Source: Methanomicrobiales archaeon (GTDB lineage: Archaea > Halobacteriota > Methanomicrobia > Methanomicrobiales > Methanospirillaceae). Taken from it: a stretch of 32,652 bases of DNA. Position numbers and translations under genes: made by a program. The stretch is taken from contig JAPKXR010000064.1 of the NCBI GenBank assembly GCA_026394715.1, forward strand, positions 1 through 32,652, given 5' to 3'. This document shows, piece after piece, positions 11,012-32,301 of this stretch; the stretch's first letter is position 1; each line of letters begins with the position of its first letter. Under the pieces are notes generated by a model. The model saw only the letters and a program-made list of their open reading frames with translations, was not told where the DNA came from and ran no database searches.

Positions 11012-14000
11012 ATGGCAGGTCTTCTCCGGGTCCTCTATGTCGATGACGACCCAGGTCTCCTGGAGATCGGCAAGCTGTTCTTAGAGGAGTCCGGTCGTTT
11101 CAGCGTTGACATCATTTCTTCTGCACCGGCTGCACTTACTCTCCTGAATGATACGAAATTCGATGCCATCATCTCCGATTACCAGATGCCGGGAATGGAC
11201 GGTATCCAGTTCCTTATCGAGGTCCGGGCAAAATTTGAGTCCATACCGTTTATCCTGTTCACCGGGAAAGGCAGGGAAGAGGTAGTCATCCAGGCAATTA
11301 ATAACGGGGTGGACTTCTATCTCCAGAAAGGCGGCGAACCGGTTGCACAGTTTGCTGAACTGGTCCACAAGATCCAGATCGCAGTCGAACATCACCGGGC
11401 CACAGAAAAAATACAGGCATTGAACAGGTTATATTCAGTACTTTCAGCCACCAATAAAGCTATTTTCAACATCCAGACGAAGATGGAGTTTTTTTCTGAA
11501 ATTTGTCGGATTCTCGTCGAAACCGGGGGGTTCCGCATGGCCTGGATCGGTATTGCCGATCTGGAGCAGAACCTCATCCGACCGGTTACATCTGCCGGGC
11601 ATGTCGATGGATACCTTGATTCCGTCAACATCTCTACCGAAGATGTCCCCCAGGGCAGGGGGCCGACCGGCACAGCATACCGGGAAGGCAAGTACTTCTG
11701 GTCTAACGATATTACACAGGACCCCCGCATGGAACCCTGGCGCGAAAACGCACTGTTACGCGGTTACCTCGCAAATGCGGCATTCGCATTTGCCCTTGGA
11801 ACAAAAAACGCCGGTGTCCTATCACTGTATGCCCCCGTCACCGGATTTTTTGATGAGCCGATCATCGATCTTCTGGATGAGTTAGCCGTTGATATCTCTT
11901 TTTTCCTCAGGACAATAGACGATCAGAATGATCGGAAACGTTTTGATGAGGAACTTTTGAGAAAAAGTGACGAACTGAGGGCCTCCTACGAGCAAATGAA
12001 TGCAACGAATGAAACACTTCGCCACACGATGGATGAGCTGTCAGGAAGAGAAAAACTCTTCCGTACCCTTTTCCAGGAGATGCTGAACGGTTTTGCAGTC
12101 CACGAAATTATCTGCGATGAGAACGGCAAGCCCCGGGATTACCGCTTTATTGATGTGAACCCGGCGTTTGAGCGGATGACCGGTCTCCGCCGTGAGAGTT
12201 TGATCGGCAAAACGGTGCTTGAAGTGCTACCGGGTATAGAACCTCTCTGGATCGAGCGGTATGGGCGTGTAGCCCTAACGGGATCCCCCGATCATTTTGA
12301 GAACTATTCCGGCGACTTAGGCAGGTCCTTTGAAGTAACCGTATACCAGAATGCCCCTTACCAGTTCACGACCGTGATATCTGACATAACGGAGCGGAAA
12401 CAGGCGGAAGCGGACCTTTCGGCAAGCGAGGAATCACTATCAGCCATGCTGAACGGGATCACCGAATCAGCATTCCTTATGACTCCGGAAGGTACAGTCC
12501 TTGCTGCAAATGAAACCGTTGCAAGACGCCTCGGAATGAAGCAGGCTGATGACCTGGTCGGTCAGAATGCATTAAGAATTCTTCCGAAAGAAGTGCAGAT
12601 GAGCCGGCAGATAAAGATACAGGAAGTAATCCAGTCCGGGCAACCGGCACATTTTGAGGATTACCGGCTGGACCGGGTTATTTCCCAGACGATTTACCCG
12701 GTTAAAGACCCGGACGGTATTGTTCGCCGTCTTGCAATTTTCGGGGTTGACGTTACCGATCGGAAGCTGACCGAAGAAGCCTTACATGAAACCAATGCAA
12801 GGTTGAAGTTTGCATTCCGTTCTGCCAGGTCGGGGTCCTGGGAATGGGACTTCCCTACCGGGAAACTCGTATGGTCCCCGGAGTTCTTTGAACTGTTTGG
12901 TCTGCCCCCGGAAGTCCCTCCGTCTTTTGAAACATGGCTTGGAGCTCTGCATCCGGATGATCGCACATCATCCATGGAGAAGATAGATCAGTCGGTAAAA
13001 GATCACAAGGACCTCTGGAACGAGTACCGGGTCCTCCTTCCGGAAGGGGGCTTGCGCTGGATTGGGGCAGCAGGCAGCACATCCTACAATGATCAAGGTG
13101 AACCGCTGCGCATGAGTGGCATATGCATTGATATCTCCGAACGTAAGCAGGCCGAAGAAGCGCTGCGGGAGAGCGAAGCACGGTATCGTCTTCTTGCAGA
13201 TAACGCAACCGACGTGATCTGGACGCTCGACCTCAAAGGTAACTTTATCTATGTCAGCCCGTCGATCTTCCAACTCCGGGGATATACCAGGGAAGAGGTG
13301 ATGCACCAGTCAATGCGCGAGGTGTTATCCGAAGGATCGGTTGCTCTCGTGGAGGAAACGATACGGCAGACGTTGGAAGAGTTTAAACCCGGTATCATTC
13401 CTGCACCGACGGTGACCGAGGTCGAGCAGCCCTGCAGGGATGGTTCATCGGTATGGACTGAGGTCGTCTCACGGTTGTTCGTTGATGAGACCGGGAACCC
13501 TGCAGGATTTATCGGTATCAGCCGTAACATCACCGAACGCAGGCGGGCGGGAGAATTGTTAAGGGAAAGTGAGGGACGTTTCCGCGCAATTCTTGATGCA
13601 ACACCGTTCCCCATTGCCTTCGTTGATGTTTTAGATAACAACATTAATTTCTGGAGCAGGAGTGCCCTCACCCTTTTCGGACATACGGCGCCGACAACAC
13701 CTGAATGGTACCAGATAGCGTACCCCGATCCACATTATCGGCGTGATGTGATTCATCGGTGGAAACCGTACCTGGAAAAGGCGAAACATTCCGGCCTGCC
13801 GGTCAACACCGGAGAATACCGGGTTACATGCCGCGATGGTTCGGTACGCATCTGCGAGCTCTATGCCGCGTTCCTGCAAGACAACCTTGTTGTCACGTTC
13901 AATGATATCACCGGGCGCAAACAGGCGGAGGAAGCGCTTCTTAAGAAAGCCGAAGAACTCTACGCAACGAACGAGGAACTGACTGCAACAGATGAGGAAC

Positions 14001-15862
14001 TGCGGCAGAATCTCGATGACCTTGGCAGGAGTGAGATGGCGCTGCGGAACCTCAGCGCCTACAACCGTAGCCTGCTCGAAGCAAGCCCTGACCCGCTCGT
14101 CACGATTGACCATGAGGGCAAGATCGCGGATGTGAACACCTCCACAGAAACGGTAACGGGGTACTCAAGAACTGAACTGATCGGCACCGATTTCTCTGAC
14201 TATTTCACCGAACCGGAGCAGGCGAAAGAGGGGTATCAACGGGTGTTCACTGGTGGCACTGTTCGCGATTACCCGCTGAGCATCCGGCACCGTGATGGTC
14301 ATATCACTCCCGTGTTGTATAATGCGACCGTGTACCTCGATGAGACCGGGAATATCAGTGGCGTCTTTGCGGCTGCCCGCGACATCACCGAGCGCAAAAG
14401 AGAGGAAGAGGCACTCAAAGAGAGTGAGGGAATAGTACAGGATATCATTGAGAAAAATCCCATGTCAATCCAGATTGTGGACCGGGAGGGGTTCACGCTC
14501 AGGGTAAACCCGGCATTCATTCGGCTTTTCGGTTCTGTTCCACCGCCGGATTTCTCGATTATTACGGATCTTGTAAAGAGTCACCCTGAACTTGAGAACC
14601 ACATCTCACGGGTAAAAAACGGGGAACCGGTTAATCTGCCTGATATGAGCTTCAACCCGCACGATATCTATCCGGAACTGCCGGATGTCCCAACCAGGGT
14701 GCGGGCAATCATTTTTCCCTTGAATGACATGCATGGAAAACCACAACGTTTTGTTTTCATGCATGAAGATATCACCGAACAGAGGCTGGCTGAAGAGGCG
14801 TTAAAGCAGGCCAACGAGCGCCTGTTGCTGGCCACTGTCGCAGGCGGGGTGGGTATCTGGGACTTAGAAGTTGTCACTAATAAGCTGACCTGGGATGACC
14901 AGATGTTTCGTCTCTATGGGATCATGAAAGAAAATTTCGGCGGCGCGTATGAGACGTGGAAGGCGAGAGTTCATCCGGAAGATGTAGAGCATGGGGATGC
15001 AGAAGTTCAGATGGCATTGCGAGGCGAAAAAGAATTTAATACGGAGTTCCGGGTTGTCTGGCCCGACGGAACGGTCCATACAATCCGGGGTCTTGCCAAT
15101 GTGGAGAGAGATGCATCAGGTAAGGCCGTCAGGCTAATCGGGACAAATTACGACATCACCGAGCGTAAAGAAGCAGAAAACTTAATACGCCACGCCCTTG
15201 CAGAGAAAGAAGTCCTCCTCCGGGAGGTTCACCACCGGGTGAAGAACAACCTTGCCGGGATCTTATCGTTAATCGAACTCCAGATAAGTTCCCTCTCCGA
15301 TCCCGTTCAGATCGCCCCGTTTAAGGACCTGGAGACCCGGATACGGAGCATGGCGCTGGTCCATGAATCGCTCTGCTCAGCAAAAGATCTCACACGGATC
15401 AACGTCGCCAGTTACACAGAAAACCTGACCCGCCACCTGCTCCCTGCATACGGGACGGCGGGCGAAGTCCGGTGCAGGATTGAGATGGGAGCTATCACCC
15501 TGCCCATGGAAACAGCCACACCCTGCGGGCTGGTCATGAACGAGATCGTCACCAACTCGCTGAAGTATGCGTTCCCGAAATCATTCTCCTGCGAAAAGAT
15601 CCGTGGGGAGCCTTGCACGATTGCACTCACACTGCACCGCGAGGGCAGCGATTATATCCTTATCGTTGCTGATAACGGCATGGGGATGCCGGAAGGGACT
15701 GATGCCACCATGTCCCACTCGCTCGGGCGGTTCCTTATCCGGTTCATTGTAGAGCACCAGCTGGGCGGGAGTATAGAGATCAGCACCGCACGAGGGACTG
15801 CGTATACGATCCGGTTCCCGGCGCCGGCAGCAAAGGAGGGAAACACCGATGAAAAAATGTAG
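11012..15862 (+). CDS. Receiver-GAF-8xPAS hybrid histidine kinase (HisKA_2 type)
   Basis: The 1616-residue soluble protein has a receiver (1-120; Asp56, Thr84, Lys106), a GAF domain (about 135-300) and a coiled coil to about 345. Eight PAS domains begin near residues 346, 472, 591, 718, 849, 1009, 1136 and 1263. A HisKA_2-type dimerisation segment EVHHRVKNNLAG gives likely phospho-acceptor His1408. An ATPase domain (about 1490-1610) has N-box MNEIVTNSLKYAF and G1 DNGMGMP. It should sense several internal signals and phosphorylate a receiver, possibly that of the next gene. The start follows leader copy C and AGGAA. It overlaps the next gene by 14 nt, so the two are translationally coupled. 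The kinase class differs from the later genes of the array, which use a TRHDINNQL motif. Confidence 0.92.
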   Translation: MAGLLRVLYVDDDPGLLEIGKLFLEESGRFSVDIISSAPAALTLLNDTKFDAIISDYQMPGMDGIQFLIEVRAKFESIPFILFTGKGREEVVIQAINNGVDFYLQKGGEPVAQFAELVHKIQIAVEHHRATEKIQALNRLYSVLSATNKAIFNIQTKMEFFSEICRILVETGGFRMAWIGIADLEQNLIRPVTSAGHVDGYLDSVNISTEDVPQGRGPTGTAYREGKYFWSNDITQDPRMEPWRENALLRGYLANAAFAFALGTKNAGVLSLYAPVTGFFDEPIIDLLDELAVDISFFLRTIDDQNDRKRFDEELLRKSDELRASYEQMNATNETLRHTMDELSGREKLFRTLFQEMLNGFAVHEIICDENGKPRDYRFIDVNPAFERMTGLRRESLIGKTVLEVLPGIEPLWIERYGRVALTGSPDHFENYSGDLGRSFEVTVYQNAPYQFTTVISDITERKQAEADLSASEESLSAMLNGITESAFLMTPEGTVLAANETVARRLGMKQADDLVGQNALRILPKEVQMSRQIKIQEVIQSGQPAHFEDYRLDRVISQTIYPVKDPDGIVRRLAIFGVDVTDRKLTEEALHETNARLKFAFRSARSGSWEWDFPTGKLVWSPEFFELFGLPPEVPPSFETWLGALHPDDRTSSMEKIDQSVKDHKDLWNEYRVLLPEGGLRWIGAAGSTSYNDQGEPLRMSGICIDISERKQAEEALRESEARYRLLADNATDVIWTLDLKGNFIYVSPSIFQLRGYTREEVMHQSMREVLSEGSVALVEETIRQTLEEFKPGIIPAPTVTEVEQPCRDGSSVWTEVVSRLFVDETGNPAGFIGISRNITERRRAGELLRESEGRFRAILDATPFPIAFVDVLDNNINFWSRSALTLFGHTAPTTPEWYQIAYPDPHYRRDVIHRWKPYLEKAKHSGLPVNTGEYRVTCRDGSVRICELYAAFLQDNLVVTFNDITGRKQAEEALLKKAEELYATNEELTATDEELRQNLDDLGRSEMALRNLSAYNRSLLEASPDPLVTIDHEGKIADVNTSTETVTGYSRTELIGTDFSDYFTEPEQAKEGYQRVFTGGTVRDYPLSIRHRDGHITPVLYNATVYLDETGNISGVFAAARDITERKREEEALKESEGIVQDIIEKNPMSIQIVDREGFTLRVNPAFIRLFGSVPPPDFSIITDLVKSHPELENHISRVKNGEPVNLPDMSFNPHDIYPELPDVPTRVRAIIFPLNDMHGKPQRFVFMHEDITEQRLAEEALKQANERLLLATVAGGVGIWDLEVVTNKLTWDDQMFRLYGIMKENFGGAYETWKARVHPEDVEHGDAEVQMALRGEKEFNTEFRVVWPDGTVHTIRGLANVERDASGKAVRLIGTNYDITERKEAENLIRHALAEKEVLLREVHHRVKNNLAGILSLIELQISSLSDPVQIAPFKDLETRIRSMALVHESLCSAKDLTRINVASYTENLTRHLLPAYGTAGEVRCRIEMGAITLPMETATPCGLVMNEIVTNSLKYAFPKSFSCEKIRGEPCTIALTLHREGSDYILIVADNGMGMPEGTDATMSHSLGRFLIRFIVEHQLGGSIEISTARGTAYTIRFPAPAAKEGNTDEKM

Positions 15863-18800
15863 CCTTCTCGTAGTTGAGGACGAAGCCCTTATTGCAGCAA
15901 ACCTTGTCCATACCCTCTCCTCGCTTGGCTATACGGTTCACAAACCGGTTGCCACAGGAGAGGATGCGGTCCGTGCAGTAGAAGGCCAGCAACCGGATCT
16001 CGTGCTCATGGACATCCAGCTGATCGGGGAGATGGACGGCATAGAAGCCGCAGATAAGATCCGGGCAATCGCCGATATCCCCATCGTATACCTCACCGCT
16101 TACTCCGATGACCTGCGCCTCAAACAGGCACGGCTCACGGAGCCGTACGGCTATATTGTAAAACCCGCTCATAACCGCGAACTCCATGCCACGATCGAGA
16201 TGGCGTTGTACAAGCATGGGCTCGACCGGAAGCTTAAGGAGAGCGAGGAGCGCAATCGGTCCATTGTAGAGGCGTTGCCCGGTTTCATCTTCCATTTTTC
16301 ATCTGATGGACGCTTTATTGACTGTCCGCTTAACAAAGGGGATCTACTGCTGCTCCCAGCTGACCAGATTATTGGCAAACGGGTAGCAGAAATCCTGCCG
16401 CCAGACCTGGCACACCTGACTGAGAGAAAAATCAGGGAAACTCTCGATAGCGGGCAACTGCAAATATTTGATTATTCGCTAACCATGCAAGACCAGGAAC
16501 ACTTTTTTGAAGCTCGCATGATAACGAGTGGGACTAACTCTGTATTGGCTTTCGTTTACGAAATCACCGAGCGCAAACGGGCGGAAGATGCGCTTTTACA
16601 GGAGAAGAACTATTCGGACAGGTTGTTCGATGCATCGCACGACACGGTCTTTTTGTTTGAGCCATCTACGGGTAAACCTATCCGGTGGAACAAAACCTTC
16701 ACCGGTGTGAGTGGCTATACGGATGACGAGATAGCGGGCATGAACGCACCCTTCGATTTCTATGATGAGGCAGATCTCAAAAAAGCCACCGATGCATTGG
16801 GAAGGAATTATGCAGGGGACGTCGCGGTCGAATTATCCCTTAGAACGAAACAGGGGGCGCATATTCCATTCGAGTACTCTGCAACCCCGATTGAAACGGC
16901 AGATGGCAGGACATTAATTCTTTCTATAGGCAGGGACCTCACCGACCGGAAGCTGGCGGAGGAAAAACTTGTAGCCGCGTTGAAAAGGGTCCAGGGGCAG
17001 CAGGCAGCACTGGCCCTGATATCGTTTTCGCCTGCCCTTCTGATGGGAGACGTGGATGGATTTTCAACCGGGCTTAACGAAGAATCGTCAGCAGTGCTTG
17101 GTGTGGAAAGGGCCAGTGTGTGGCTTTTCGACAATAACGGTGATGAACTACGGTGCATTGACCTGTACGAGGCCTCGCATAACCGGCACTCCGGGGACCT
17201 TATACTGATGCGTGATGAATATGAGAACGAGTTTGACGCCTTAAGGACGGCAAAGTACATCGATGCCCATGATCCGCTGACGGACCCACGTACGGCGGGA
17301 TACGTGGAACGTTACCTCAAACCCAACCACATCACCTCAATGCTGGACGCAGTGATACGGGTCTCCGGGCAGAACCTCGGTGTCCTCTGTTTTGAGCATG
17401 TTAACCGTCCGCATACCTGGGAGAGCGATGAGATCACATTTGCCTGCCAGCTTGCCGACCAGGTTGCGATTACCCTGCTGAACCGTGACCGGAAACGGGC
17501 AGAAGAGGCGCTGCGGGAGAGCGAGGAAAAATTCCGGCTTATTTCGGAGAGTTCTCCGGACCATATTATTATTCAGGACTGCGACTTGCGCTACATCTGG
17601 GTCCTTAACCCGCAACTGGGGCTCATGCCGGGAGATATGATCGGGAAAACCGATCATGATTTCCTGTCAAAGGAGGATGCAGACCTGCTGACTCTGGTAA
17701 AAAGGCAGGTCCTAATGACCGGGAAGGCAAAACCATTTGAAACATCGCTGTCATCATCACAGGGAGTGACTGAGTATTTTGAAGGGGTGTATCTCCCGAA
17801 ATATGATACTGCAGGCAGGGTTGACGGCGTGATGGGATATTTCAGAAACATCACGGGACGTAAAGAGGCTGAAGAAGCGCTGCGCGAATCCGAACGCAGA
17901 TTGAAAGATATCATCAGTTTCCTGCCAGATGCAACCCTTGTCATTGACAAAAACGGGGTGGTCCTTGCGTGGAACCGCGCAATGGAGGAGATGACGGGTG
18001 TTCCTGCAGAACAGATGATCGGGAAAGCGAATTATGAATATGCTCTCCCATTCTACCACGAACGGCGTCCGATCACGGTCGATCTCGTACTTCATGATGA
18101 CCCGGCGGTTGTTGCAACCTATCCTTTCATGCAAACGGAAGGCGGGTCCAGACGATCGGAGATTTTTATCCCGTACCTCAATAAGGGCAGGGGCGCATAT
18201 ATCTGGTTTGTCGCATCCCCGCTCTATGACGCAGACGGGAATCTTACGGGAGCAATTGAATCCATCCGGGACATCACGGAGCGCAGGCAGGCGGATGAGG
18301 CAGTCCGCCAGGCAAACAGGAAGCTCAACCTCCTCTCCTCCATCACCCGGCACGACATCAACAACCAGCTGCTTGTGCTGAATGGATTTCTGAATTTATT
18401 GCAAAAAAAAGCCATGGACCCGGCATTGGAAGACTTCTTCAACCGGATCACGAAGGCAAGCTCCCGGATCTCCGCCATGATCCAGTTTACCAAGGAATAC
18501 GAACAGATCGGTGTCCACGCTCCCGCATGGCAGGACTGCCGTACACTCGTAGACACTGCGGCCAGGCAAGCCCCGCTTGGAAAGGTCATCGTGCAGAACG
18601 ATCTGCCTTCCGGATCGGAAGTGTTCGCCGACCCGCTGGTTGTCAAGGTCTTCTATAACCTGATGGACAACGCAGTCCGGTACGGTGAGAAGATCACGAC
18701 CATCCGGTTCTCCGCGATGGAACGTGATGACAACCTGGTTGTTATCTACGAGGATGATGGAGACGGAGTCCCGGCAGATGAGAAAGAGAAGATCTTCGAG

Positions 18801-18962
18801 CGGGGCTTTGGGAATAACACCGGGCTTTGTTTAGCCTTATCAAGGGAGATCCTTTCGATCACCGGGATCACGATCACAGAGACCGGTGAGCCCGGGCAAG
18901 GGGCACGGTTCGGGATGACGGTGCCGAAGGGAATGTGGCGGATGGCAGGGAATGATACATAA
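15849..18962 (+). CDS. Receiver-PAS-PAS-GAF-PAS-PAS histidine kinase
   Basis: The 1037-residue protein has a receiver of a different subtype (VVEDEALIAANLV; Asp55 in LMDIQL, Thr83, Lys105). PAS domains follow at about 128-240 and 255-375, GAF at about 385-545, then PAS at about 556-675 and 680-815. The dimerisation helix has His835 in TRHDINNQL. The ATPase domain has N-box NLMDNAVRYG, G1 EDDGDGVP and F-box IFERGFG. The G2 box reads NNTGLCLALS: Cys994 replaces a Gly that is kept in the 18962 and 30994 sequences, which may weaken ATP binding. GGAGGG at about 15836-15841 precedes the ATG, inside the end of the previous gene. The receiver is the natural partner for the adjacent HisKA_2 kinase. 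The stop overlaps the next start (TAATG). Confidence 0.92.
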   Translation: MKKCSLLVVEDEALIAANLVHTLSSLGYTVHKPVATGEDAVRAVEGQQPDLVLMDIQLIGEMDGIEAADKIRAIADIPIVYLTAYSDDLRLKQARLTEPYGYIVKPAHNRELHATIEMALYKHGLDRKLKESEERNRSIVEALPGFIFHFSSDGRFIDCPLNKGDLLLLPADQIIGKRVAEILPPDLAHLTERKIRETLDSGQLQIFDYSLTMQDQEHFFEARMITSGTNSVLAFVYEITERKRAEDALLQEKNYSDRLFDASHDTVFLFEPSTGKPIRWNKTFTGVSGYTDDEIAGMNAPFDFYDEADLKKATDALGRNYAGDVAVELSLRTKQGAHIPFEYSATPIETADGRTLILSIGRDLTDRKLAEEKLVAALKRVQGQQAALALISFSPALLMGDVDGFSTGLNEESSAVLGVERASVWLFDNNGDELRCIDLYEASHNRHSGDLILMRDEYENEFDALRTAKYIDAHDPLTDPRTAGYVERYLKPNHITSMLDAVIRVSGQNLGVLCFEHVNRPHTWESDEITFACQLADQVAITLLNRDRKRAEEALRESEEKFRLISESSPDHIIIQDCDLRYIWVLNPQLGLMPGDMIGKTDHDFLSKEDADLLTLVKRQVLMTGKAKPFETSLSSSQGVTEYFEGVYLPKYDTAGRVDGVMGYFRNITGRKEAEEALRESERRLKDIISFLPDATLVIDKNGVVLAWNRAMEEMTGVPAEQMIGKANYEYALPFYHERRPITVDLVLHDDPAVVATYPFMQTEGGSRRSEIFIPYLNKGRGAYIWFVASPLYDADGNLTGAIESIRDITERRQADEAVRQANRKLNLLSSITRHDINNQLLVLNGFLNLLQKKAMDPALEDFFNRITKASSRISAMIQFTKEYEQIGVHAPAWQDCRTLVDTAARQAPLGKVIVQNDLPSGSEVFADPLVVKVFYNLMDNAVRYGEKITTIRFSAMERDDNLVVIYEDDGDGVPADEKEKIFERGFGNNTGLCLALSREILSITGITITETGEPGQGARFGMTVPKGMWRMAGNDT

Positions 18963-21900
18963 TGGCGGGACTGCTCCGGGTACTGTATGTCGATGACGAA
19001 CCAGGTCTTCTTGGTATCGGCAAGCGGTTCCTTGAGAAAGAGGGAGCATTTACCGTCGATACGCTCACTTCTGCAAAGCAGGCACTGGAGCAGTTGAACA
19101 CGAAGCAGTATGATGTCATCATCTCCGATTACCAGATGCCGGAGATGGACGGTATCCAGTTCCTTGTTGAGGTGCGGGCCCGCTTTGGACAGGTACCATT
19201 CATCCTGTTCACCGGCAGGGGCCGGGACGAGGTGGTCATCCAGGCAATCAATAGCGGAGCGGACTTCTATATCCAGAAAGGCGGAGACCCGAAAGCGCAG
19301 TTTGCCGAGCTCACCCATAAGGTGAGGCAGGCGGCATCCCAAAAAAGGGCGGAAGAAGCCATTAAACGAAGCGAGGCCCAACTAATCGCCATTATCCAGG
19401 GTTCACCTATCCCGAAGTTTGTCATCGACAGAGACCACCACGTAATCCATTGGAATAAAGCGCTTGAAGGATACAGCGGGATATTGGAAAAAGAAATTGT
19501 AGGCACCAATCAACACTGGCGGGCATTTTACAAAGAAGCTCGCCCCTGCCTGGCGGACCTCCTTTTAGATGGTGCCGTTGAGAAGATCCCGGATTGGTAT
19601 GTGGGAAAATATGCAACGTCAAAACTAATTGATGGTGCCTATGAAGCGACGGATTTTTTTCCCCAGATGGGCAAAGCAGGGACATGGCTCTTTTTTACCG
19701 CGTCGGCGATAACAGATGATAAGGGGGAGATCCTTGGTGCCATTGAAACGCTCGAAGATATCACAGAAACGCGCCTTAAAACAGAAGAATTAACAGCTGC
19801 CTACCAAAAAATACAGGTCGCCTTTGACCAGGCGAAACTGAGCGAGGACCGGTACCGGAACGTTGTCGAAGACCAGACGGAGCTCATCTCCCGGTTCTAC
19901 CCTGACGGCACCCATGTCTTTGTCAATGAGGCATATTGCCGCTATTTCGGAAAGAGCCGGGAGGATATCATCGGGCATATTTTCATGCCTGTTATTCCAA
20001 AAGAAGACCGGCTAAAACTCAAAGAGCACTTCCTGTCCCTGTCTCCCCAAACCCCCGTTGCCATGATAGAACACCGCATTACCATGCAGGACGGTTCAGT
20101 GTGCTGGCAACGCTGGTCAGAACGTGCAATTTTTGATAATGAGGGGAAAATCCTCGAATACCAGTCGGTCGGCAGGGATATTACCGATATAAAAAATGCC
20201 GAGATTGAACTCAACCGCAGCCACGAAGATTTATCTGCGGCGTATGAACAGATCGCCGCCGTGGAGGGGGAACTGCGCAGTAATTATAATGAACTTGCAA
20301 ATAACCAGGACCTTTTACGGCAGAGTGAGAACCGGTACCGGAACATTGTCGAAGACCAGACGGAATTCATCTCCCGGTTCCTCCCCGATGGTACTCACGT
20401 CTTTGTTAACGAGGCATATTGCCGGTGCTTTGGAAAGACCCCCGATGAGATCATCGGTCATATCTTTGTACCTGATATCCCAAAAAAGGACCAGCTCATT
20501 GTCCGGCAGCACTTTCAATCACTCACACCAGAAAATCCGGTTGCAACGGTTGCCCACCGCATCCTCATGCCCGACGGGTCAGTCCATTGGCATCGCTGGT
20601 CAGACCGTGCAATTTTCAATGAAGCAGGCTCGATCGTGGAGTACCAGTCTGTAGGGCGGGACATCACTGAACAGAAAGAGGTGGAAGAGGCCATTAAGAG
20701 AAATGAGGCCCAACTGACTGCTATTATCCAGAGTTCCCCCATCCCGAAGTTTGTCATCGACAAAAACCATTGCGTTATTCACTGGAACAAAGCGCTTGAA
20801 GGGTTCAGCGGGATACGGGAAAAAGATATTGTTGGCACAAAACAACACTGGAGGGCATTTTACGAAGAAGCTCGCCCCTGCATGGCAGACCTTCTGGTCG
20901 ATGGTACTATCGGGAAGATATCAAGATGGTATGAAGGGCAGTACAGTACATCGAAATTTATTGAAGGTTCCTATGAAGCAACAGACTTTTTCCCGCAATG
21001 GGGAAAGAACGGGACGTGGTTGTATTTCCTTGCAGCACCGATCAGGGATACAGAAGGGAATATTATCGGTGCGGTGGAAACAATCGAGGACATCACCGGA
21101 CGCAAAATGGCCGAAGAAGCGCTCCGGGAATCCGAACGCAGGGTGACGGACATCATTAGTTTCCTGCCTGATGCAACCCTTGTCATTGACAAAAATGGGA
21201 CGCTCCTTGCATGGAACCATGCAATGGAGGAGATGACCGGTGTTCCTGCAGAACAGATGATCGGCAAAGCGAATTATGAATATGCTCTCCCGTTCTACCA
21301 CGAACGGCGTCCGATCACGGTAGATCTCGTCCTTCACGATGACCCGGCGGTTGTTGCAAAATATCCGGTCATAAAAAGGAAAGGTAAATCCCTGTATTCT
21401 GAGATTTTTATCCCGCACCTCAATGAGGGGAGGGGTGCACACCTCTGGTTTACGGCATCCCCGCTCTATGACACAGCCGGGAATCTAACGGGTGCAATCG
21501 AATCCATCCGGGATATCACCGAACGGAAGCAGGCGGAGGAGGCACTCCGCACAAGCGAGGAACGATATCACGATGTGATCGAGGACCAGACTGAATTCAT
21601 CTGCCGGTTTCTCCCGGACGGCACCCACATTTTTGTCAACGAAGCGTATTGCCGGTATTTCGATAAGAAACAGGAAGAGATCATCGGCCACCGGTTCAGA
21701 CCTGTAATCCCTTCGGAAGACCGGGAAATTGTTGCCCGGCATATGGCCTCATTAACCCCGCAACACCCTGTAACAAATATCGATCATCGGATCATCATGC
21801 CCGATGGCAGCACCCGCTGGCAGCGGTGGAGTGACCATGCAATCTTTGATCAAAACGGCGGGGTTATTCAATACCAGTCGGTAGGCAGGGATATTACCGA

Positions 21901-22624
21901 CACGAAAGAACTCGAAAAGGAGATGGAATTCCATGAGCAGGAACTCATGAAATCCTCAACTTCGCTCGCTATTGCGAACAGGAAACTTACACTTCTCTCC
22001 AGTATCTCACGGCACGATATCAACAACCAGCTGACCATACTGCAGGGATATCTCGAAATACTCGAAGACAGCCAGCTTGATCCCTCACAGAGTGAGTATT
22101 TCGGGAAGGTTTCGACCGCTGCCAAACGGATATCCGCCATGATCCAGTTCACTAAGGAATACGAGGAGATCGGTGTCCTTGTCCCCGCCTGGCAGGACTG
22201 CCGTACACTCGTGGACACCGCTGCAAAGCAAAATCAGATCGGAGTGGTCATCGTGCAGAACGATCTCCCTGCCGGTGCAGACGTGTTCGCCGACCCGCTG
22301 GTTGTCAGGGTCTTCTATAACCTGATGGACAATGCAGTCCGGTACGGTGGGAAGATCACGACCATCCGGTTCTCTGCGCTGGAATCCGGAGATGACCATA
22401 TGATCGTATGCGAAGACGATGGCGACGGTATCATTGCAGCAGAGAAGGAGAAGATCTTCGAGCGGGGATTCGGAAAGAATACTGGCATGGGACTGTTCCT
22501 ATCACGGGAGATCCTCTCCATCACGGGCATCACTATCGCCGAGACGGGTGAGCCCGGGCAGGGGACACGGTTCGAGATGACGGTGCCGAAGGGGATGTGG
22601 CGGACGGCCGGGAAGGGGGCTTAA
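18962..22624 (+). CDS. Receiver-6xPAS histidine kinase with duplicated PAS modules
   Basis: The 1220-residue protein has a receiver (Asp56) and six PAS domains starting near residues 137, 294, 456, 581, 721 and 863. Its dimerisation segment contains His1018 in SRHDINNQL. The ATPase domain is complete, with NLMDNAVRYG, EDDGDGI, IFERGFG and GKNTGMGLFLS. PAS 1 and 4 are copies of each other (SPIPKFVID...HWNKALEG). PAS 2, 3 and 6 are copies (VEDQTE.ISRF..DGTHVFVNEAYC). PAS 5 is almost the same as the last PAS of the 15849 gene, down to DNA level. It looks like a fully active kinase. The start overlaps the previous stop by one base, and the next gene starts four bases after its stop, so it belongs to the same operon. 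Confidence 0.92.
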   Translation: MAGLLRVLYVDDEPGLLGIGKRFLEKEGAFTVDTLTSAKQALEQLNTKQYDVIISDYQMPEMDGIQFLVEVRARFGQVPFILFTGRGRDEVVIQAINSGADFYIQKGGDPKAQFAELTHKVRQAASQKRAEEAIKRSEAQLIAIIQGSPIPKFVIDRDHHVIHWNKALEGYSGILEKEIVGTNQHWRAFYKEARPCLADLLLDGAVEKIPDWYVGKYATSKLIDGAYEATDFFPQMGKAGTWLFFTASAITDDKGEILGAIETLEDITETRLKTEELTAAYQKIQVAFDQAKLSEDRYRNVVEDQTELISRFYPDGTHVFVNEAYCRYFGKSREDIIGHIFMPVIPKEDRLKLKEHFLSLSPQTPVAMIEHRITMQDGSVCWQRWSERAIFDNEGKILEYQSVGRDITDIKNAEIELNRSHEDLSAAYEQIAAVEGELRSNYNELANNQDLLRQSENRYRNIVEDQTEFISRFLPDGTHVFVNEAYCRCFGKTPDEIIGHIFVPDIPKKDQLIVRQHFQSLTPENPVATVAHRILMPDGSVHWHRWSDRAIFNEAGSIVEYQSVGRDITEQKEVEEAIKRNEAQLTAIIQSSPIPKFVIDKNHCVIHWNKALEGFSGIREKDIVGTKQHWRAFYEEARPCMADLLVDGTIGKISRWYEGQYSTSKFIEGSYEATDFFPQWGKNGTWLYFLAAPIRDTEGNIIGAVETIEDITGRKMAEEALRESERRVTDIISFLPDATLVIDKNGTLLAWNHAMEEMTGVPAEQMIGKANYEYALPFYHERRPITVDLVLHDDPAVVAKYPVIKRKGKSLYSEIFIPHLNEGRGAHLWFTASPLYDTAGNLTGAIESIRDITERKQAEEALRTSEERYHDVIEDQTEFICRFLPDGTHIFVNEAYCRYFDKKQEEIIGHRFRPVIPSEDREIVARHMASLTPQHPVTNIDHRIIMPDGSTRWQRWSDHAIFDQNGGVIQYQSVGRDITDTKELEKEMEFHEQELMKSSTSLAIANRKLTLLSSISRHDINNQLTILQGYLEILEDSQLDPSQSEYFGKVSTAAKRISAMIQFTKEYEEIGVLVPAWQDCRTLVDTAAKQNQIGVVIVQNDLPAGADVFADPLVVRVFYNLMDNAVRYGGKITTIRFSALESGDDHMIVCEDDGDGIIAAEKEKIFERGFGKNTGMGLFLSREILSITGITIAETGEPGQGTRFEMTVPKGMWRTAGKGA

Positions 22625-22628
22625 ATTA

Positions 22629-24068
22629 ATGGCAGATACACTCCGTGTCCTCTACGTCGATGACGAATCAGACCTTCTTGATATTGGCAGGATCTTCCTT
22701 GAGCAGGCCGGAGAGTTTTCTGTAACAACCATTGATTCGGCGCCTGCTGCCTTAACACTCCTTAACAAGGAGAAATTCGATGCAATCGTCTCCGATTACC
22801 AGATGCCAGGGATGAGCGGCATCCAGTTCCTTATTGAGGTCCGGAATAAATTTGGGTCAATACCGTTCATCCTGTTCACCGGTAAAGGCAGGGAAGAGGT
22901 GGTTATCCAGGCGATCAACAGCGGAGCGGACTTTTACCTCCAGAAAGGCGGTGATCCCAGTGCACAGTTTGCCGAACTCTCACACAAGATCAAAAAAGCA
23001 GTGGAAGGAAGTCGGGCGGAAGAAGCATTACGTGAATCTGAGAATACGTTTGCAACCATTTTTAAGAGTAACCCTGTTTCAATGACGCTTGTTTCGGCGA
23101 CTGATGGCGTTTTTGTGGATGTCAATGATGCATTTATGCGGAATACCGGGTATATCCGGGAAGAGATGGTCGGCAAAACTTCCATGGAACTGGGGATTTT
23201 TGCCGATAAAGATGAACAGGAATGGCTGGCCTCCGAACTTCAGAAAAATCGTCGCGTAGGTGGGATGGAATTGCATACCCGGACAAAATCAGGGGAAATC
23301 AGTACCAGCCAGTTTTCCTCCAGCGTTATTGTGATCGGAGGCAGGCCTTACATCCTCTCAACGGTAGAAGATATCAGCGGGCGCAAACTCGCTGAAGAAA
23401 CCCTCCGCCGGGTGAACCAGAAGCTCAACGTGATCTCCAAGCTGACACGGGAAGACTTATTCAGCCAGATTGTTCTCCTGAATGACTGCCTCCTGCTCGC
23501 GAAAGAACAGGCAGCCGGCCAGGACCAGGTTATTCTAACGTTACAAAAGAGCCAGCAGGCAGCCCGTTTAATCCAGGGTACCATCGAATATTCGAACGAT
23601 TACCAGGATATGGGTACGAAACCCCAAAAATGGCAGAATGTGAGGATGGTGATGTTGTTTGGCCTCTCTCAAATATCCAACGGTGAAATCCAGCCCAGTC
23701 TTGAAACCGGAGACCTCGAGATCTTTGCCGATCCCCTGCTGGAACTGGTGTGCCAGGGCCTCTTCGAGAATGCGCTCGCGCACGGCGGCCATGCCATACA
23801 GATCCGGGTCTGGCATACGTTGACTACCGACGGGGTCACCATAATTTTTGAAGATGATGGCATCGGGATCCCGCAGGAGAAGAAGGTGCAGATCTTTTTG
23901 CGCAGCGGGGATAGAGGCCATGCCTCGGTAAGGAGCCTCAATTTTGCGAGGGAAATCCTTGACATCACCGGGATCACGATCAAAGAGACCGGCGAGCAGG
24001 GGAAGGGGGCACGGTTCGAGCTGACGGTACCGAACGGGGCGTGGCGAATGGTGGGGAAGGGAGTCTGA
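22629..24068 (+). CDS. Receiver-PAS-pseudokinase, phospho-acceptor His replaced by Glu
   Basis: The 479-residue protein has a receiver (1-120; Asp56, Thr84, Lys106), one PAS domain (about 138-255) and a transmitter-like region (260-479). Where the array kinases read TRHDINNQL, this protein reads TREDLFSQI, with Glu275 at the His position. The N-box Asn (Asn381 in FENALAHGG) and G1 (EDDGIGIP) remain. The region equal to G2 reads DRGHASVRSLNFA and lacks the GxG pattern. It is therefore unlikely to autophosphorylate and may serve as an adaptor or regulator that binds a real kinase. The C-terminal signature ARFELTVPNGAWRM is kept, so the domain is under constraint. It begins four bases after the previous stop. 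Confidence 0.88.
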   Translation: MADTLRVLYVDDESDLLDIGRIFLEQAGEFSVTTIDSAPAALTLLNKEKFDAIVSDYQMPGMSGIQFLIEVRNKFGSIPFILFTGKGREEVVIQAINSGADFYLQKGGDPSAQFAELSHKIKKAVEGSRAEEALRESENTFATIFKSNPVSMTLVSATDGVFVDVNDAFMRNTGYIREEMVGKTSMELGIFADKDEQEWLASELQKNRRVGGMELHTRTKSGEISTSQFSSSVIVIGGRPYILSTVEDISGRKLAEETLRRVNQKLNVISKLTREDLFSQIVLLNDCLLLAKEQAAGQDQVILTLQKSQQAARLIQGTIEYSNDYQDMGTKPQKWQNVRMVMLFGLSQISNGEIQPSLETGDLEIFADPLLELVCQGLFENALAHGGHAIQIRVWHTLTTDGVTIIFEDDGIGIPQEKKVQIFLRSGDRGHASVRSLNFAREILDITGITIKETGEQGKGARFELTVPNGAWRMVGKGV

Positions 24069-24132
24069 TGTTATTGATATCCTTCACCCAGGCAGGTATC
24101 GGACTGAACGTTGCATGTCAAGGTAGGATGCA

Positions 24133-26562
24133 ATGAGGCCGGATATCCGATGGTGGCATATCATCGCACTGGTCATCATCATTGCCGGTGTGTTCCTTAC
24201 AATCTGGACCGCGCAGCAACAGGATCTGCGGATGAGGACAGAACTCCTGACAAAGGCAAAAATTGCTACGGAGAGTATAGATCCTGTAAGATTAGAGACA
24301 TTAAATGGTTCTCCTTCCGATATCACATCTCCGGATTACCAGTACCAAAAAGCAAAGCTGGCGCGAATCAGGGCTGCCGATCCATCCATCCAATTCGCAT
24401 ACCTGATGGGACAGAGACCTGGCGGGGGGGTATTCTTCTATGGCGATTCGGAGCCTGTGGACTCCCCTGATTATTCCCCGCCCGGACAGGAGTACCCCGA
24501 AGTATCAGCCCTGTTCCTGAAGGCTTTTTCCGAAAAAGCGGAGTTGACCGAGGGTCCGAGCTCTGATCGCTGGGGTACATCCGTTAGTGCAATTGTTCCA
24601 ATCACTGACCCTGAAACGGGACAGCTTATCGCTGTATTTGGGATGGATGTCGAAGCCAAAAACTGGAACTCTGCCATCGTACAAGCCTCTGCATCTATCA
24701 TAACAGCTACACTCCTTATCCTGGTATTAGTTGTTACATTCGGACTCATCCAGCGGCGTAACCGAAGGGAGGAACGGCGGCTTGCGGCATCCGAGGCCAA
24801 ATTTTCCCGTGCATTTCACACAAATCCTGCGCTTATGGCCGTATCGTTCATCGAAGATGGCAGATTTCTCGACGTAAACTCGTCGTTTTTAAAGGCCCTG
24901 GGCTATACCCGGGAGGAGGTAATCGGGAGGACTCCGATCGACCTCGGCCTCTATTCAGACCCTGCCCAGTGGGATTTCATCCAGGGCCAGATTACAGAGA
25001 ACGGGCATGTGGGTGATCTTGATCTGAAAGTAATCAGGAAATCCCACAACACGCTGGACGGATCGTTCTCCGCAACTCCGATTGACGTTGGCGGCATTTC
25101 CTGCCTGCTCACCCTCATACTCGATATCACCGAGCGCAAGCGAGCGGAGGAGGCACTATATATGTCGCTTGTGATGGACAGTATTCCAACGCGGCTCTGC
25201 TACGTTGATGCAGATCTGCGCTATGTCTATGTGAACAACGCCTATGCGGAATGGTACGGGAAGACCAGGAAAGAGTTCAGGGGAAAAAGTATCAGCGATG
25301 TAAAGGGTGAAGCGGTATTCCGACAAGACCTCCCTCATTACCAGGTGGTATTGAGCGGGAGACCCGTCTCTTTTGAGAGAATTGACCTTGGTGAAGAAGG
25401 GTTTGAACATTTTGAAATTGTCACCCTGGTCCCGCACTACGACGGGGGACTGGTCACGGGCTTTTTTGCATCTATTCTGGACATCACCGAACGCACGCGT
25501 GCAGAGGAGGCGCTGCGGCAGAGTGAAGAGAAATTCCGGGGCATCTTTGACACGATAAATGACGGGATCCATATCCACGAGACGGGACCTGATGGGATGC
25601 CCGGACAATTCATTGAAGTAAACGAAGTCGCCTGCCGGATGCTTGGTTTTTCCCGCGAGGAACTCCTGGAGCACGGGCCCCTTGATTTTGTCACCGGCTA
25701 TCACAACCGGCCAGTCAATGGGATCATCGAAGAATTAGCTTCAACCGGGCACTCGTTCTTCGAGACCGAGCACCGGAGAAAGGATGGTTCAATTGTTCCG
25801 GTCGAGATCAACTCTCACGTGGTCAGTCTCCAGGGAAAACGGATGACTGTTGCGGTGGTCCGGGATATCACCGAACGCAAACGAGCGGAAAACACACTCA
25901 AGCGGGTGAACCAGAAGCTCAATTTCCTCTCCCAGCTGACAAGACAGGACTTAACCAGCCAGATCTTTGTCCTGAACAGTTACCTGGAGCTGGCGAAAAA
26001 GCAGGCGGCCGGGCAGGGTCAGATTCTTGAGAGCATACAAAAAGGTAAGCGGGCTGCAGAGTCAATTTACGCGATCACAGAAATTACAAAGAATTACCAG
26101 GACATGGGTGCAAAACCCCCAAAATGGCAGAATGTGAAGATGGCGATGTTGTTTGGACTCTCCCACATCCCCCTCGGTGAAATTCAGCACAGTATTGAAA
26201 CCGAAGGTCTCGAAATCTTTGCCGATTCCCTGCTGGAAAAGGCATTCCAGCGCCTATGCGAGAGCTCGTTCACGCATGGGGTCCGTGTCACCCGTACCCG
26301 GTTATGGAAAAAGATGACTGCTGGTGAGCTCACTATCTTCTTTGAAGACGACGGGATCGGCATCCCGCCTGAGAAGAAGGAGCAGATTTTTTTGCGAAGC
26401 GAGGGTGTCACCCGTGCCTCGAGGGGGAGTCTCATCTTCGTCCGTGAGATCCTTGACATCACTGGCATCACGATTACTGAGACCGGCGAGCCGGGCAGGG
26501 GTGCACGGTTTGAGATGACGGTGCCGAAGGGGGCGTGGCGGATGGCGGTGGATGGTGATTGA
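24133..26562 (+). CDS. Membrane sensor-3xPAS-pseudokinase, phospho-acceptor His replaced by Gln
   Basis: The 809-residue protein has TM1 at about 9-26 and an extracytoplasmic region at about 27-183. That region resembles a small-molecule Cache-type sensor (contains PSIQFAYLMGQRP and SEPVDSPDYSPPGQE). TM2 is at about 184-207, followed by PAS domains near 220-335, 343-455 and 463-585 and a transmitter-like region at 590-809. Gln605 sits at the His position (TRQDLTSQI). The N-box Asn is also lost (CESSFTHG; Ser711), and the G2 box is absent (GVTRASRGSLIFV). G1 (EDDGIGIP) remains. It probably cannot transfer phosphate; it may pass an external signal to the soluble proteins of the array. AGGTAGGATGC before the ATG supports this start. 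A 64-nt gap separates it from the 22629 gene. Confidence 0.88.
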   Translation: MRPDIRWWHIIALVIIIAGVFLTIWTAQQQDLRMRTELLTKAKIATESIDPVRLETLNGSPSDITSPDYQYQKAKLARIRAADPSIQFAYLMGQRPGGGVFFYGDSEPVDSPDYSPPGQEYPEVSALFLKAFSEKAELTEGPSSDRWGTSVSAIVPITDPETGQLIAVFGMDVEAKNWNSAIVQASASIITATLLILVLVVTFGLIQRRNRREERRLAASEAKFSRAFHTNPALMAVSFIEDGRFLDVNSSFLKALGYTREEVIGRTPIDLGLYSDPAQWDFIQGQITENGHVGDLDLKVIRKSHNTLDGSFSATPIDVGGISCLLTLILDITERKRAEEALYMSLVMDSIPTRLCYVDADLRYVYVNNAYAEWYGKTRKEFRGKSISDVKGEAVFRQDLPHYQVVLSGRPVSFERIDLGEEGFEHFEIVTLVPHYDGGLVTGFFASILDITERTRAEEALRQSEEKFRGIFDTINDGIHIHETGPDGMPGQFIEVNEVACRMLGFSREELLEHGPLDFVTGYHNRPVNGIIEELASTGHSFFETEHRRKDGSIVPVEINSHVVSLQGKRMTVAVVRDITERKRAENTLKRVNQKLNFLSQLTRQDLTSQIFVLNSYLELAKKQAAGQGQILESIQKGKRAAESIYAITEITKNYQDMGAKPPKWQNVKMAMLFGLSHIPLGEIQHSIETEGLEIFADSLLEKAFQRLCESSFTHGVRVTRTRLWKKMTAGELTIFFEDDGIGIPPEKKEQIFLRSEGVTRASRGSLIFVREILDITGITITETGEPGRGARFEMTVPKGAWRMAVDGD

Positions 26563-26811
26563 TGGCTGCGGATGAGCGTAGCCGCTATTGCAGGAGCTTC
26601 GCGACAAGCAATGGGTGTCATCATCTCAACAGAACGACACCGTAACACAGCGAAGTGATCTGAAGCAAGCCTGATAATCAGGCATGGCGAGTAACCATCA
26701 CCGGGCGTCATCCGGTCAACCGTACATGGGAGGTCAATGCGTTTCCGTGTGCACCTCTCCCAATCACCTAGTGCCCCACCAGGTATCACGACAGGTTAAC
26801 CCAACAATCGA
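26563..26811. ncRNA. Structured intergenic region with four consecutive hairpins (candidate RNA)
   Basis: Four hairpins follow one another: GCCTGA-TAA-TCAGGC (26669-26683), ATGG-7 nt-CCAT (26684-26698), ACCGG-7 nt-CCGGT (26700-26716), and TGGGAGGT with ACCTCTCCCA (26727-26762, with a 2-nt bulge). They lie between the last kinase gene and the Fic gene. No known RNA family was recognised and no gene is supported; a reading frame from 26684 exists but lacks a start signal. Confidence 0.4.
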
Positions 26812-26852
26812 TTTATTATTATATCCTACTAATACTACTGATAATACTACTG
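26812..26852 (+). promoter_or_regulatory. TATA box and 11-bp tandem direct repeat before the Fic gene
   Basis: TTTATTATTATATCC (26812-26826) is a TATA-like box about 30-35 nt before the ATG at 26855. Two copies of TAATACTACTG (26830-26840, 26842-26852) fill the space between it and the start. With no SD site, the transcript is probably leaderless, and the repeats sit where a repressor would block initiation. Confidence 0.5.
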
Positions 26853-26854
26853 CT

Positions 26855-27895
26855 ATGATAAAACTTCAAATAAAGAATATTAAAGGCAATAAATACCTCT
26901 ATTTCAGTGAAAGCCTCAAAGTTAACTCTAAATCACTATATATACAGCTTTACGGTGGTAGAATAGATAAAATAACCCTAAATGAGTTTTACGATAAACA
27001 GAGAGAGTACAATTTTATCAGGTTAACAAAGTTTTTAGATTATCGCGTGGGTCACTACCATGCTGAATTCATCGATAAAGAGCGAATTGCGGCACTTGAA
27101 ACACTCCGGTATTATCACACCGAATTTAAAAACCTCTACCCGGATGAAAGCACCAGGTATGGTGAGTCTGTGTTCGTTCGCTATGTCCAGGGCACGACAG
27201 CAATTGAGGGTAACACCATCTCACCCCGGGAAGTACAGGAGCTTCTTGAGCATGATATCTCTCCTGGGGGGAAGAAAGTTTCCGAAGTTTATGAAATTCT
27301 TAATTTCGTGAAACTCCGGGATTTTTTGACGACATATAAGGGGGATGTATCGGAAAAATTGATCAAAAGGATGCATGCGATCCTCATGGGGGACCTGATG
27401 CGGACACCCGGGGAGTACCGGCAGATCCAGGTGGGGATCGAAAAAGTCGACTACGAACCTCCACCCGCAATACTGGTCCCGGATCTGATGAACGAGCTGA
27501 TGTTGTGGTACCGGGCCAATGCAAAAAAAAGCCACCCGTTTGAACTTGCAACTCTGTTTCACACGCGCTTTGAACTGGTCCACCCATTCATCGATGGAAA
27601 TGGAAGGGTCGGCAGGGCCCTCATGAATTTCATTCTTGAAAGGGGCGGGTATCCAACGATATATCTTGGATTGTCTCATCGAAAGGACTATCTCGATGCA
27701 ATTAAGCCCGCCGATGATGGATACTATGGCCCCATGGTAACCATGCTCCTTGAAACCTATCTCGACCAGCACAAAGAGGTTGCCGACCAGGTCATGATAA
27801 CGATGAATAGTTCCCAAAAGAAGTCAAAGGTTGATTATTTAGTAAAAGAGTTTTTACAGCTTAAAAAAGCACACGAAAAGCCAATCCATGACTAA
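26855..27895 (+). CDS. Fic-domain protein (probable AMP transferase) with class II inhibitory motif
   Basis: The 346-residue protein has the Fic core HPFIDGNGRVGR (about residues 243-254). The catalytic His and the phosphate-binding GNGR are intact, so it should transfer AMP (or a related group) to a hydroxyl side chain of a target protein. An inhibitory motif TTAIEGN, of the (S/T)xxxE(G/N) form, lies N-terminal to it as in class II Fic proteins, where the Glu blocks ATP in the resting state. The first 60 codons are distinctly AT-rich (for example NIKGNKYLYFSES) compared with neighbours, which suggests a transferred or fused segment. The ATG at 26855 is preferred because it follows a TATA box; a longer frame to 26684 crosses hairpins and has no start signal. 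The target is unknown. Confidence 0.88.
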   Translation: MIKLQIKNIKGNKYLYFSESLKVNSKSLYIQLYGGRIDKITLNEFYDKQREYNFIRLTKFLDYRVGHYHAEFIDKERIAALETLRYYHTEFKNLYPDESTRYGESVFVRYVQGTTAIEGNTISPREVQELLEHDISPGGKKVSEVYEILNFVKLRDFLTTYKGDVSEKLIKRMHAILMGDLMRTPGEYRQIQVGIEKVDYEPPPAILVPDLMNELMLWYRANAKKSHPFELATLFHTRFELVHPFIDGNGRVGRALMNFILERGGYPTIYLGLSHRKDYLDAIKPADDGYYGPMVTMLLETYLDQHKEVADQVMITMNSSQKKSKVDYLVKEFLQLKKAHEKPIHD

Positions 27896-27999
27896 TACAA
27901 GAAATGTGATGCAAAAATATGAACCCTGTGGGACCAGACGAGGAAGCAGCTTGCGGGGACGTGAACAACATTCCCTGCCCGGCTGGAAGAGATTCGGAC

Positions 28000-28111
28000 C
28001 ATTCCCGGCACCACTATCACCGGGACGGGCGAGCCTGGGCAGGGGGCACGGTTCGGGATGGCGGTGCCGAAGGGAGCGTGGCGGTTCCAGTTCGATAAGG
28101 GACCGGAATAA
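28000..28111 (+). pseudogene. Orphan histidine-kinase C-terminal tail, remnant 1
   Basis: A frame reads TITGTGEPGQGARFGMAVPK, then GAWRFQFDKGPE and a stop at 28109-28111. This is the end of an ATPase domain as in the array kinases. Upstream there is no N-box, G1 or G2 box. A 56-base stretch (28026-28081) is identical to 32222-32277. Confidence 0.8.
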
Positions 28112-29395: not shown

Positions 29396-29419
29396 TGGAG
29401 ACTCACGATAGTGTGTATC

Positions 29420-30736: not shown

Positions 30737-30993
30737 ATATTCGTTCAATTGTGTATATCCGCGAAGAACAGCCGGGAAAGGAAAAGATGTAAGGGATGAA
30801 TATAGTGGCTATACAGAAGGGATATTGAGAGAATACCCCGTTTGATGCCCGCGCTGAAGCCAGCATACACCGGATTCATGAAGAATATCCAAGCCAGGTG
30901 TATATTGGCGATGATGCATGCATGGGGTGAAGCAATTAAAATCCTGCGGCAGATTGAACCTACAATTCTCCCCGTGAGACCAACACGACAACG

Positions 30994-32139: not shown

Positions 32140-32301
32140 TCTGGTTTCGGGAAGAATAGTGCTCTTGGTTTAGCCATTTCCCGTGAGATCCTCGCGGTCA
32201 ACGGCATCACGATCAAAGAGGCGGGCGAGCCTGGGCAGGGGGCACGGTTCGGGATGGCGGTGCCGAAGGGAGCGTGGTGGATGAATGGGGATCGTGCATG
32301 A
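32140..32301 (+). pseudogene. Orphan histidine-kinase C-terminal tail, remnant 3
   Basis: Codons read GFGKNSALGLAISREILAVN, GITIKEAGEPGQGARFGMAV and PKGAWWMNGDRA to a stop at 32299-32301. The G2 box is partly degraded (NSALGLA). Nothing of the upstream kinase remains. A 56-base part is identical to remnant 1. Confidence 0.8.

What the first reader, a model, noticed from the sequence alone, without database searches (positions are those of the whole stretch)
22629..26562. Two consecutive pseudokinases end the sensor-kinase array
In 15849 and 18962 the dimerisation helix reads (T/S)RHDINNQL. In the 22629 protein the same position is Glu275 (TREDLFSQI) and in the 24133 protein Gln605 (TRQDLTSQI). 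Both also lack the GxG of the G2 ATP-lid box, and the second lacks the N-box Asn (CESSFTHG). G1 and the C-terminal signature are kept. They share a special region (DYQDMG.KP.KWQNV, MLFGLS) absent from the active kinases, so they form a subfamily rather than random decay. They may act as allosteric partners of the active kinases, one soluble with a receiver, one in the membrane with an external sensor domain.
Basis: partly seen in the sequence, partly recalled or inferred. Interest (0 to 1): 0.72.

Follow-up and report, generated by a model that had tools for sequence, protein, structure and literature searches.

The report
Conserved kinase-dead sensor proteins in methanogens
Two neighbouring sensor proteins of a methane-producing archaeon have lost the parts needed to phosphorylate themselves, and this is a shared trait of a conserved subfamily (about 10 copies in this genome, about 40 in 12 related genomes), so these methanogens appear to keep a set of 'dead' kinases as regulators.

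Summary
The His site is Glu275 in the 22629 protein and Gln605 in the 24133 protein. Both lack the G2 glycines, and the second lacks the N-box Asn. They belong to a sharply bounded subfamily: 39 complete transmitters plus a fragment in 12 genomes and 5 genera, all in one family (Methanoregulaceae by the names of related records). Ten are in this genome, about one sixth of its HATPase_c domains. The His site is Lys 25, Gln 8, Arg 4, Glu 1, His 1. The lone His is a recombinant whose His-bearing segment comes from an active kinase. The canonical ATP lid is absent in 39/39, while overall conservation and dN/dS (median 0.23 versus 0.22) equal those of the active kinases, so this is not decay. A sister group in three species of another genus has Thr at the site. 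About 25 of 36 with readable neighbours sit beside an active histidine kinase on the same strand. Catalytic columns are relaxed while the regulator-docking face stays tight but differs from the active kinases. Best reading: kinase-dead transmitters that act by binding receiver domains or partner kinases (like DivL or RetS); a phosphatase-only role is the main rival. New variant of a known kind; moderate interest.

The parts
22629..24068 (+). Kinase-dead transmitter protein 1: REC-PAS-DHp-CA, 479 aa, soluble
22647..22961 (+). N-terminal receiver domain, acidic pair (VDDE), phospho-Asp (SDYQMP), Thr and Lys present
23451..23453 (+). Codon of Glu275 at the phospho-acceptor His site (H+1 Asp, H+4 Ser279)
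23766..23792 (+). N-box LFENALAHG, Asn383 kept
23856..23879 (+). G1 box EDDGIGIP kept
23898..23960 (+). Rewritten ATP lid (IFLRSGDRGHASVRSLNFARE), G2 glycines absent; low model confidence here
24133..26562 (+). Kinase-dead transmitter protein 2: 2 TM helices with external region, 3 PAS, DHp-CA, 809 aa
25945..25947 (+). Codon of Gln605 at the phospho-acceptor His site (H+1 Asp, H+4 Ser609)
26269..26271 (+). Codon of Ser713 in place of the N-box Asn (LCESSFTHG)
26350..26373 (+). G1 box EDDGIGIP kept
26392..26454 (+). Rewritten ATP lid (IFLRSEGVTRASRGSLIFVRE), G2 glycines absent
18962..22624 (+). Active-type hybrid kinase (REC, 6 PAS, SRHDINNQL, GMGLF) ending 4 nt upstream of the first kinase-dead gene; presumed partner
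15849..18962 (+). Active-type hybrid kinase (REC, PAS, GAF, TRHDINNQL)
11012..15862 (+). First kinase of the array, REC-GAF-PAS-HisKA_2-HATPase (different transmitter class)

Best explanation
The two genes encode members of a conserved, multi-copy subfamily of histidine-kinase-like proteins that cannot autophosphorylate. The acceptor His is replaced by Lys, Gln, Arg or Glu and the ATP lid is rewritten (shown by sequence; loss of activity inferred). The dimerisation (DHp) domain and the CA fold are retained. The subfamily most likely works as a non-enzymatic signalling platform: many kinds of sensor move the dimer, and its DHp face binds a receiver domain and/or a neighbouring active kinase, changing how much phosphate flows in the local kinase network. 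This resembles DivL reading DivK~P or RetS restraining GacS. Shown: loss of motifs, conservation, purifying selection, tandem placement, conserved docking face. Inferred: the binding partner and the direction of the effect.
For: His absent in 38/39 and canonical GxGLG absent in 39/39; the ORFs are open apart from one copy with a TGA, with some copies cut by contig ends. Subfamily dN/dS median 0.23, max 0.39; active kinases 0.22. Mean column entropy is the same as in the active kinases (1.00 v 0.99 bits), but H0 (1.35 v 0), H+4 (1.43 v 0) and the lid (1.38 v 0.40) are relaxed, while docking positions stay tight: H+7 0.35 v 1.20, H+12 0.59 v 0.90. At H+7 Phe (37/39) replaces Thr, and at H+11 Ser (32/39) replaces Gly; H+7, H+11 and H+12 correspond to T250, L254 and A255, the main EnvZ specificity sites (PMC2991266). 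No substitute His conserved in DHp. Five or more sensor types sit on the same output module. Tandem with active HKs; the same pair is kept in three genomes (L183, L187, L191), and a REC-bearing member beside a 4HB-HAMP-GAF-HisKA-HATPase-REC-REC hybrid in two genera (L188, L204). AlphaFold model has the HK fold (pLDDT 78, pTM 0.69).
Against: No experiment. H+4 is Asn, Ser or Thr in 38/39 and H+1 acidic in 39/39, which a pure binding platform would not need. Asn in the N-box (35/39) and G1 (39/39) are kept, so nucleotide may still bind. No pair-specific co-evolution with the neighbouring kinase. About 11 of 36 members have no kinase neighbour in the DNA held.
Confidence: 0.5

Rival explanations
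1. Phosphatase-only transmitters. Without the acceptor His they cannot donate phosphate, but the residue at H+4 still positions water to remove phosphate from receivers, so these sensors only switch pathways off.
For: H+4 is Asn 24, Ser 10, Thr 4, Ile 1, and the sister group in another genus has Asn in 3/3. CrdS H371A keeps phosphatase activity, N375 (H+4) is essential and Thr partly works (PMC3510030). DrBphP is a natural kinase-inactive phosphatase (PMC8292422).
Against: H+4 is invariant Asn in active relatives (29/29) but drifts here, entropy above the domain average. Both window proteins have Ser, which I did not find tested in those papers. HK853 H260A showed diminished phosphatase activity (PMC5727384). 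The DrBphP reaction depended on ATP (PMC8292422), and the ATP lid here is rewritten.
Confidence: 0.25
2. Dedicated heterodimer partners. Each pairs with the active kinase encoded next to it and tunes its autophosphorylation through the shared four-helix bundle.
For: Tandem genes, 7/10 v 13/48 within 3.5 kb, p = 0.014; orthologous pairs kept across genomes. ChrS made into a pseudokinase forms heterodimers with HrrS (PMC9491836).
Against: Distance matrices of 18 neighbouring pairs uncorrelated (r = 0.03; DHp only r = 0.22, p = 0.09), and the neighbour is not the most similar active kinase (mean rank 9 of 18). Some members have no kinase neighbour.
Confidence: 0.17
3. Decaying paralogues left over from expansion of the kinase array.
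For: One copy has an internal stop (L008), and kinase 3'-end remnants lie nearby. The second window protein has also lost the N-box Asn.
Against: dN/dS 0.09-0.39, the same as active kinases; a conserved new lid sequence and MLFGLSHIS stretch; orthologues across genera.
Confidence: 0.03
4. Still active kinases with a different acceptor residue or an unusual ATP lid.
For: N-box Asn 35/39, G1 39/39 and H+1 acidic residue 39/39 retained.
Against: No conserved substitute His in DHp; the acceptor position varies among Lys, Gln, Arg and Glu, none a usual phospho-acceptor; the F-box and G2 region is gone.
Confidence: 0.05

Closest known systems
DivL of Caulobacter (PMC4211667)
   Same: HisKA-type DHp-CA fold with the acceptor His replaced (Tyr550), no kinase activity, PAS sensors; DivL matched by profile and by fold (E 1.9e-10)
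   Different: Single bacterial protein with Tyr; here a multi-copy archaeal subfamily with Lys, Gln, Arg or Glu and a rewritten lid, usually beside an active kinase; binding to a receiver not tested
RetS of Pseudomonas (PMC5992135)
   Same: Sensor kinase that restrains another sensor kinase; a model for how a transmitter acts on a hybrid kinase
ChrS frameshift pseudokinase of C. glutamicum (PMC9491836)
   Same: Kinase-inactive transmitter that forms heterodimers with a paralogous kinase
   Different: Laboratory-evolved CA frameshift, not a natural conserved family
Archaeal 'HisKA, no HATPase' non-enzymatic HK-like proteins (PMC5847659)
   Same: Kinase-incompetent HK-like proteins in the same archaeal class
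   Different: The mirror image: those keep His and lack HATPase; ours lack His and keep HATPase
DrBphP phosphatase phytochrome (PMC8292422)
   Same: Natural transmitter without kinase activity
   Different: DrBphP has Glu at H+4 and needs ATP; ours has Asn, Ser or Thr and an altered lid

Membership tests
HisKA/HATPase_c sensor histidine kinase (catalytically competent) | Phospho-acceptor His in DHp helix 1 | tested here: not met
   E275, Q605; 38 of 39 subfamily members lack it
HisKA/HATPase_c sensor histidine kinase (catalytically competent) | HATPase_c fold with G1 box | tested here: met
   Pfam 43.6 and 34.8 bits over a cut-off of 26.4; DxGxG kept
HisKA/HATPase_c sensor histidine kinase (catalytically competent) | N-box Asn | tested here: inconclusive
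   Met in 22629 and 35/39 overall, not met in 24133
HisKA/HATPase_c sensor histidine kinase (catalytically competent) | G2 glycines and ATP lid | tested here: not met
   absent in 39/39, present in 29/29 active-type relatives apart from one Gly to Cys
HisKA/HATPase_c sensor histidine kinase (catalytically competent) | HisKA Pfam domain (PF00512) | tested here: not met
   no match in either window protein at E up to 1; the two active neighbours match
Pseudo-histidine kinase (works like DivL) | HK fold with acceptor His lost but under selection | tested here: met
Pseudo-histidine kinase (works like DivL) | Tyr at the His site (DivL itself) | tested here: not met
   Lys 25, Gln 8, Arg 4, Glu 1, His 1
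Pseudo-histidine kinase (works like DivL) | Binding of a phosphorylated receiver without catalysis | not testable with these tools
   needs biochemistry
Phosphatase-only HisKA transmitter | Asn or Thr at H+4 | tested here: inconclusive
   28/39 Asn or Thr, 10/39 Ser; both window proteins Ser

The most novel reading that the evidence does not exclude
A lineage of methanogens has turned one sixth of its kinase-like sensors into a dedicated kinase-dead class sharing one conserved, distinct docking face. Many different sensors then act on the same receiver(s) by binding or dephosphorylation, a signal-integration layer parallel to the active kinases and not described for archaea.
Probability: 0.3. 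Interest if true: 0.65.

Novelty: new variant of a known kind. Interest (0 to 1): 0.47.

Why it matters
Natural kinase-dead histidine kinases are known mostly as single cases such as DivL. Here a whole multi-copy subfamily, with intact paralogues next door, is maintained by selection in methanogens, where I found no role described for such proteins. The active and dead forms differ at few places and recombine naturally (L186), so it is a convenient system for testing what a dead transmitter does. It also warns that automatic annotation as 'histidine kinase' would be wrong for about a sixth of these genes in this genome.

Tried and rejected
Random decay: rejected by dN/dS and by the conserved new motifs. 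A shifted acceptor His or Tyr in DHp: none conserved near the site. Pair-specific co-evolution with the adjacent kinase: not seen. The single His-bearing member as ancestral: rejected, nested among Lys members and active-type only up to about H+6. Folding without an alignment gave a useless model (pLDDT 36). The class-level genome search returned the same 232 genomes as the order. NCBIfam gave no specific family. Literature searches found no report of His-less HATPase-bearing kinases in methanogens, but only open-licence papers are held.

Full report
OBSERVATION. The two ORFs are intact and lie at the stated coordinates, as the last two of five co-directional kinase genes spanning 11012-26562. 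Gaps are -14, -1, +4 and +64 nt. Alignment with the two preceding kinases places Glu275 and Gln605 at the acceptor His and shows the loss of the G2 glycines in both and of the N-box Asn in the second only. HATPase_c is recognised in both and HisKA in neither. Its 'special region' is only partly special: YQDMGxKPPxWQNV is a variant of a motif also found in active kinases, whereas the MLFGLSHIS stretch is restricted to the subfamily.

SUBFAMILY. A search of the window's genome with residues 252-479 gave ten matches at 61-100% identity, then nothing until 41% among full-length matches. All nine that cover the His site lack it. A profile of eight of them, run over the 232 held genomes of the order, gave subfamily scores of 334-452 bits (fragment copies apart) and then a drop to 253. 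The members lie in 12 of 108 genomes of the same family and 5 of its 17 genera, and in none of the other five families. Named relatives are Methanoregula and uncultured Methanomicrobiales MAGs. The window's genome has ten copies among 59 HATPase_c matches over the cut-off: eight intact, one with an internal TGA, one cut by a contig end.

RESIDUES. Over 39 transmitters: His site Lys 25, Gln 8, Arg 4, Glu 1, His 1; H+1 Asp 37, Glu 2; H+4 Asn 24, Ser 10, Thr 4, Ile 1; N-box Asn 35; G1 glycines 39; canonical lid glycines 0. The 29 active-type kinases in the same loci have His 29, Asp 29, Asn 29, N-box Asn 29, and the G2 glycines in all but one (Cys). Mean entropy over the transmitter is the same in both sets (1.00 and 0.99 bits); only the catalytic columns are relaxed. 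Docking positions H+7 and H+12 are tighter than in the active kinases and H+11 about as tight, with different residues at H+7 and H+11. dN/dS is 0.09-0.22 for most of the closest pairs and has a median of 0.23 over 267 pairs with dS below 1, against 0.22 for active kinases. For the window genes against their nearest relatives it is 0.24-0.35.

HISTORY. The tree puts the 39 plus one divergent Gln-bearing relative (L200) in one clade (96/96). A sister lineage in genus g15, three species, has Thr at the His site, Glu at H+1, Asn at H+4 and no G2. The only His-bearing member, L186:1629-3389, is nested deep among Lys members. Its sequence is active-type up to about H+6 and subfamily-type afterwards, so it is a recombinant. 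Loss of His therefore probably happened once before the clade spread, although support at the base is moderate.

ARCHITECTURE AND CONTEXT. The same output module is joined to REC-PAS, two-TM external, four-TM, seven-TM and soluble PAS inputs. By my reading of the ORF tables, about 25 of 36 members with readable neighbours are next to an active histidine kinase on the same strand. In this genome 8 of 10 have another kinase within 4.5 kb, against 19 of 48 for other kinases (p = 0.02; 0.014 at 3.5 kb, 0.05 at 6 kb). Three genomes share the same dead-active pair (L183, L187, L191). In two genera a REC-bearing member follows a 4HB-HAMP-GAF-HisKA-HATPase-REC-REC hybrid (L188, L204). Neighbouring pairs show no correlated divergence.

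STRUCTURE. With an alignment of 34 sequences AlphaFold2 gives an HK fold (pLDDT 77.8, pTM 0.69) with low confidence in the lid. The nearest solved structures are ZraS, HK853, CpxA and others, with DivL among the hits.

MECHANISM. Kinase incompetence follows from the missing acceptor and lid (established HK biochemistry). What remains, a dimer with a conserved receiver-docking face, an intact CA fold and varied sensors, fits a binding module. DivL is the precedent: it has neither kinase nor phosphatase activity and binds DivK~P (PMC4211667). The phosphatase reading stays open because CrdS H371A keeps most activity while N375 at H+4 is essential (PMC3510030), and H+4 here is almost always Asn, Ser or Thr. 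Against it, H+4 is more variable than the domain average, and both window proteins carry Ser. Heterodimers with the adjacent kinase remain possible (PMC9491836 for ChrS-HrrS).

NOVELTY. The archaeal census of two-component systems (PMC5847659) describes, in the passages read, HK-like proteins with His but no HATPase, not the reverse. I found no description of this subfamily, within the limits of the library. The kind (pseudo-histidine kinase) is known; a selected, multi-copy archaeal subfamily with a rewritten lid is a new variant.

Noticed in passing
window 27986-28090, 30988-31221, 32140-32283 (+): Remnants of kinase 3' ends (35, 78 and 48 aa; the last two clearly active-type), direct repeats of the intact kinase ends at 22508, 23952 and 26446 (75-81% identity). 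They lie around a Fic gene (26684-27895) and an AAA_14/DUF4143 ATPase (29411-30736), suggesting insertions or recombination at conserved kinase 3' ends.
   Followed up: partly
L176:4818-6203 (-): An AAA_14/DUF4143 gene lies directly downstream of a subfamily gene and before an active kinase in another genome, recalling the window.
   Followed up: no
L186:1629-3389 (-): Natural chimera: active-type DHp helix 1 with His joined to a subfamily body.
   Followed up: yes
L193:769-1391 (+): A decayed active-type kinase lies directly upstream of an intact subfamily gene.
   Followed up: no
L201:3903-5786, L201:6079-7944, L203:4905-7157, L200:6274-8121 (-): Further His-less transmitters (Asp, Arg, Gln, Gln at the His site) outside or at the edge of the subfamily; L201:6079 keeps a partly canonical lid and may be an intermediate.
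   Followed up: partly
L206:13557-15316 (+): Corrinoid-binding and URO-D methyltransferase-like genes directly follow a subfamily gene, a possible hint at a regulated pathway.
   Followed up: no
L177:3942-4976 and L181:3962-5068: NMT1-type solute-binding protein gene next to subfamily genes of the same architecture in two genomes.
   Followed up: no
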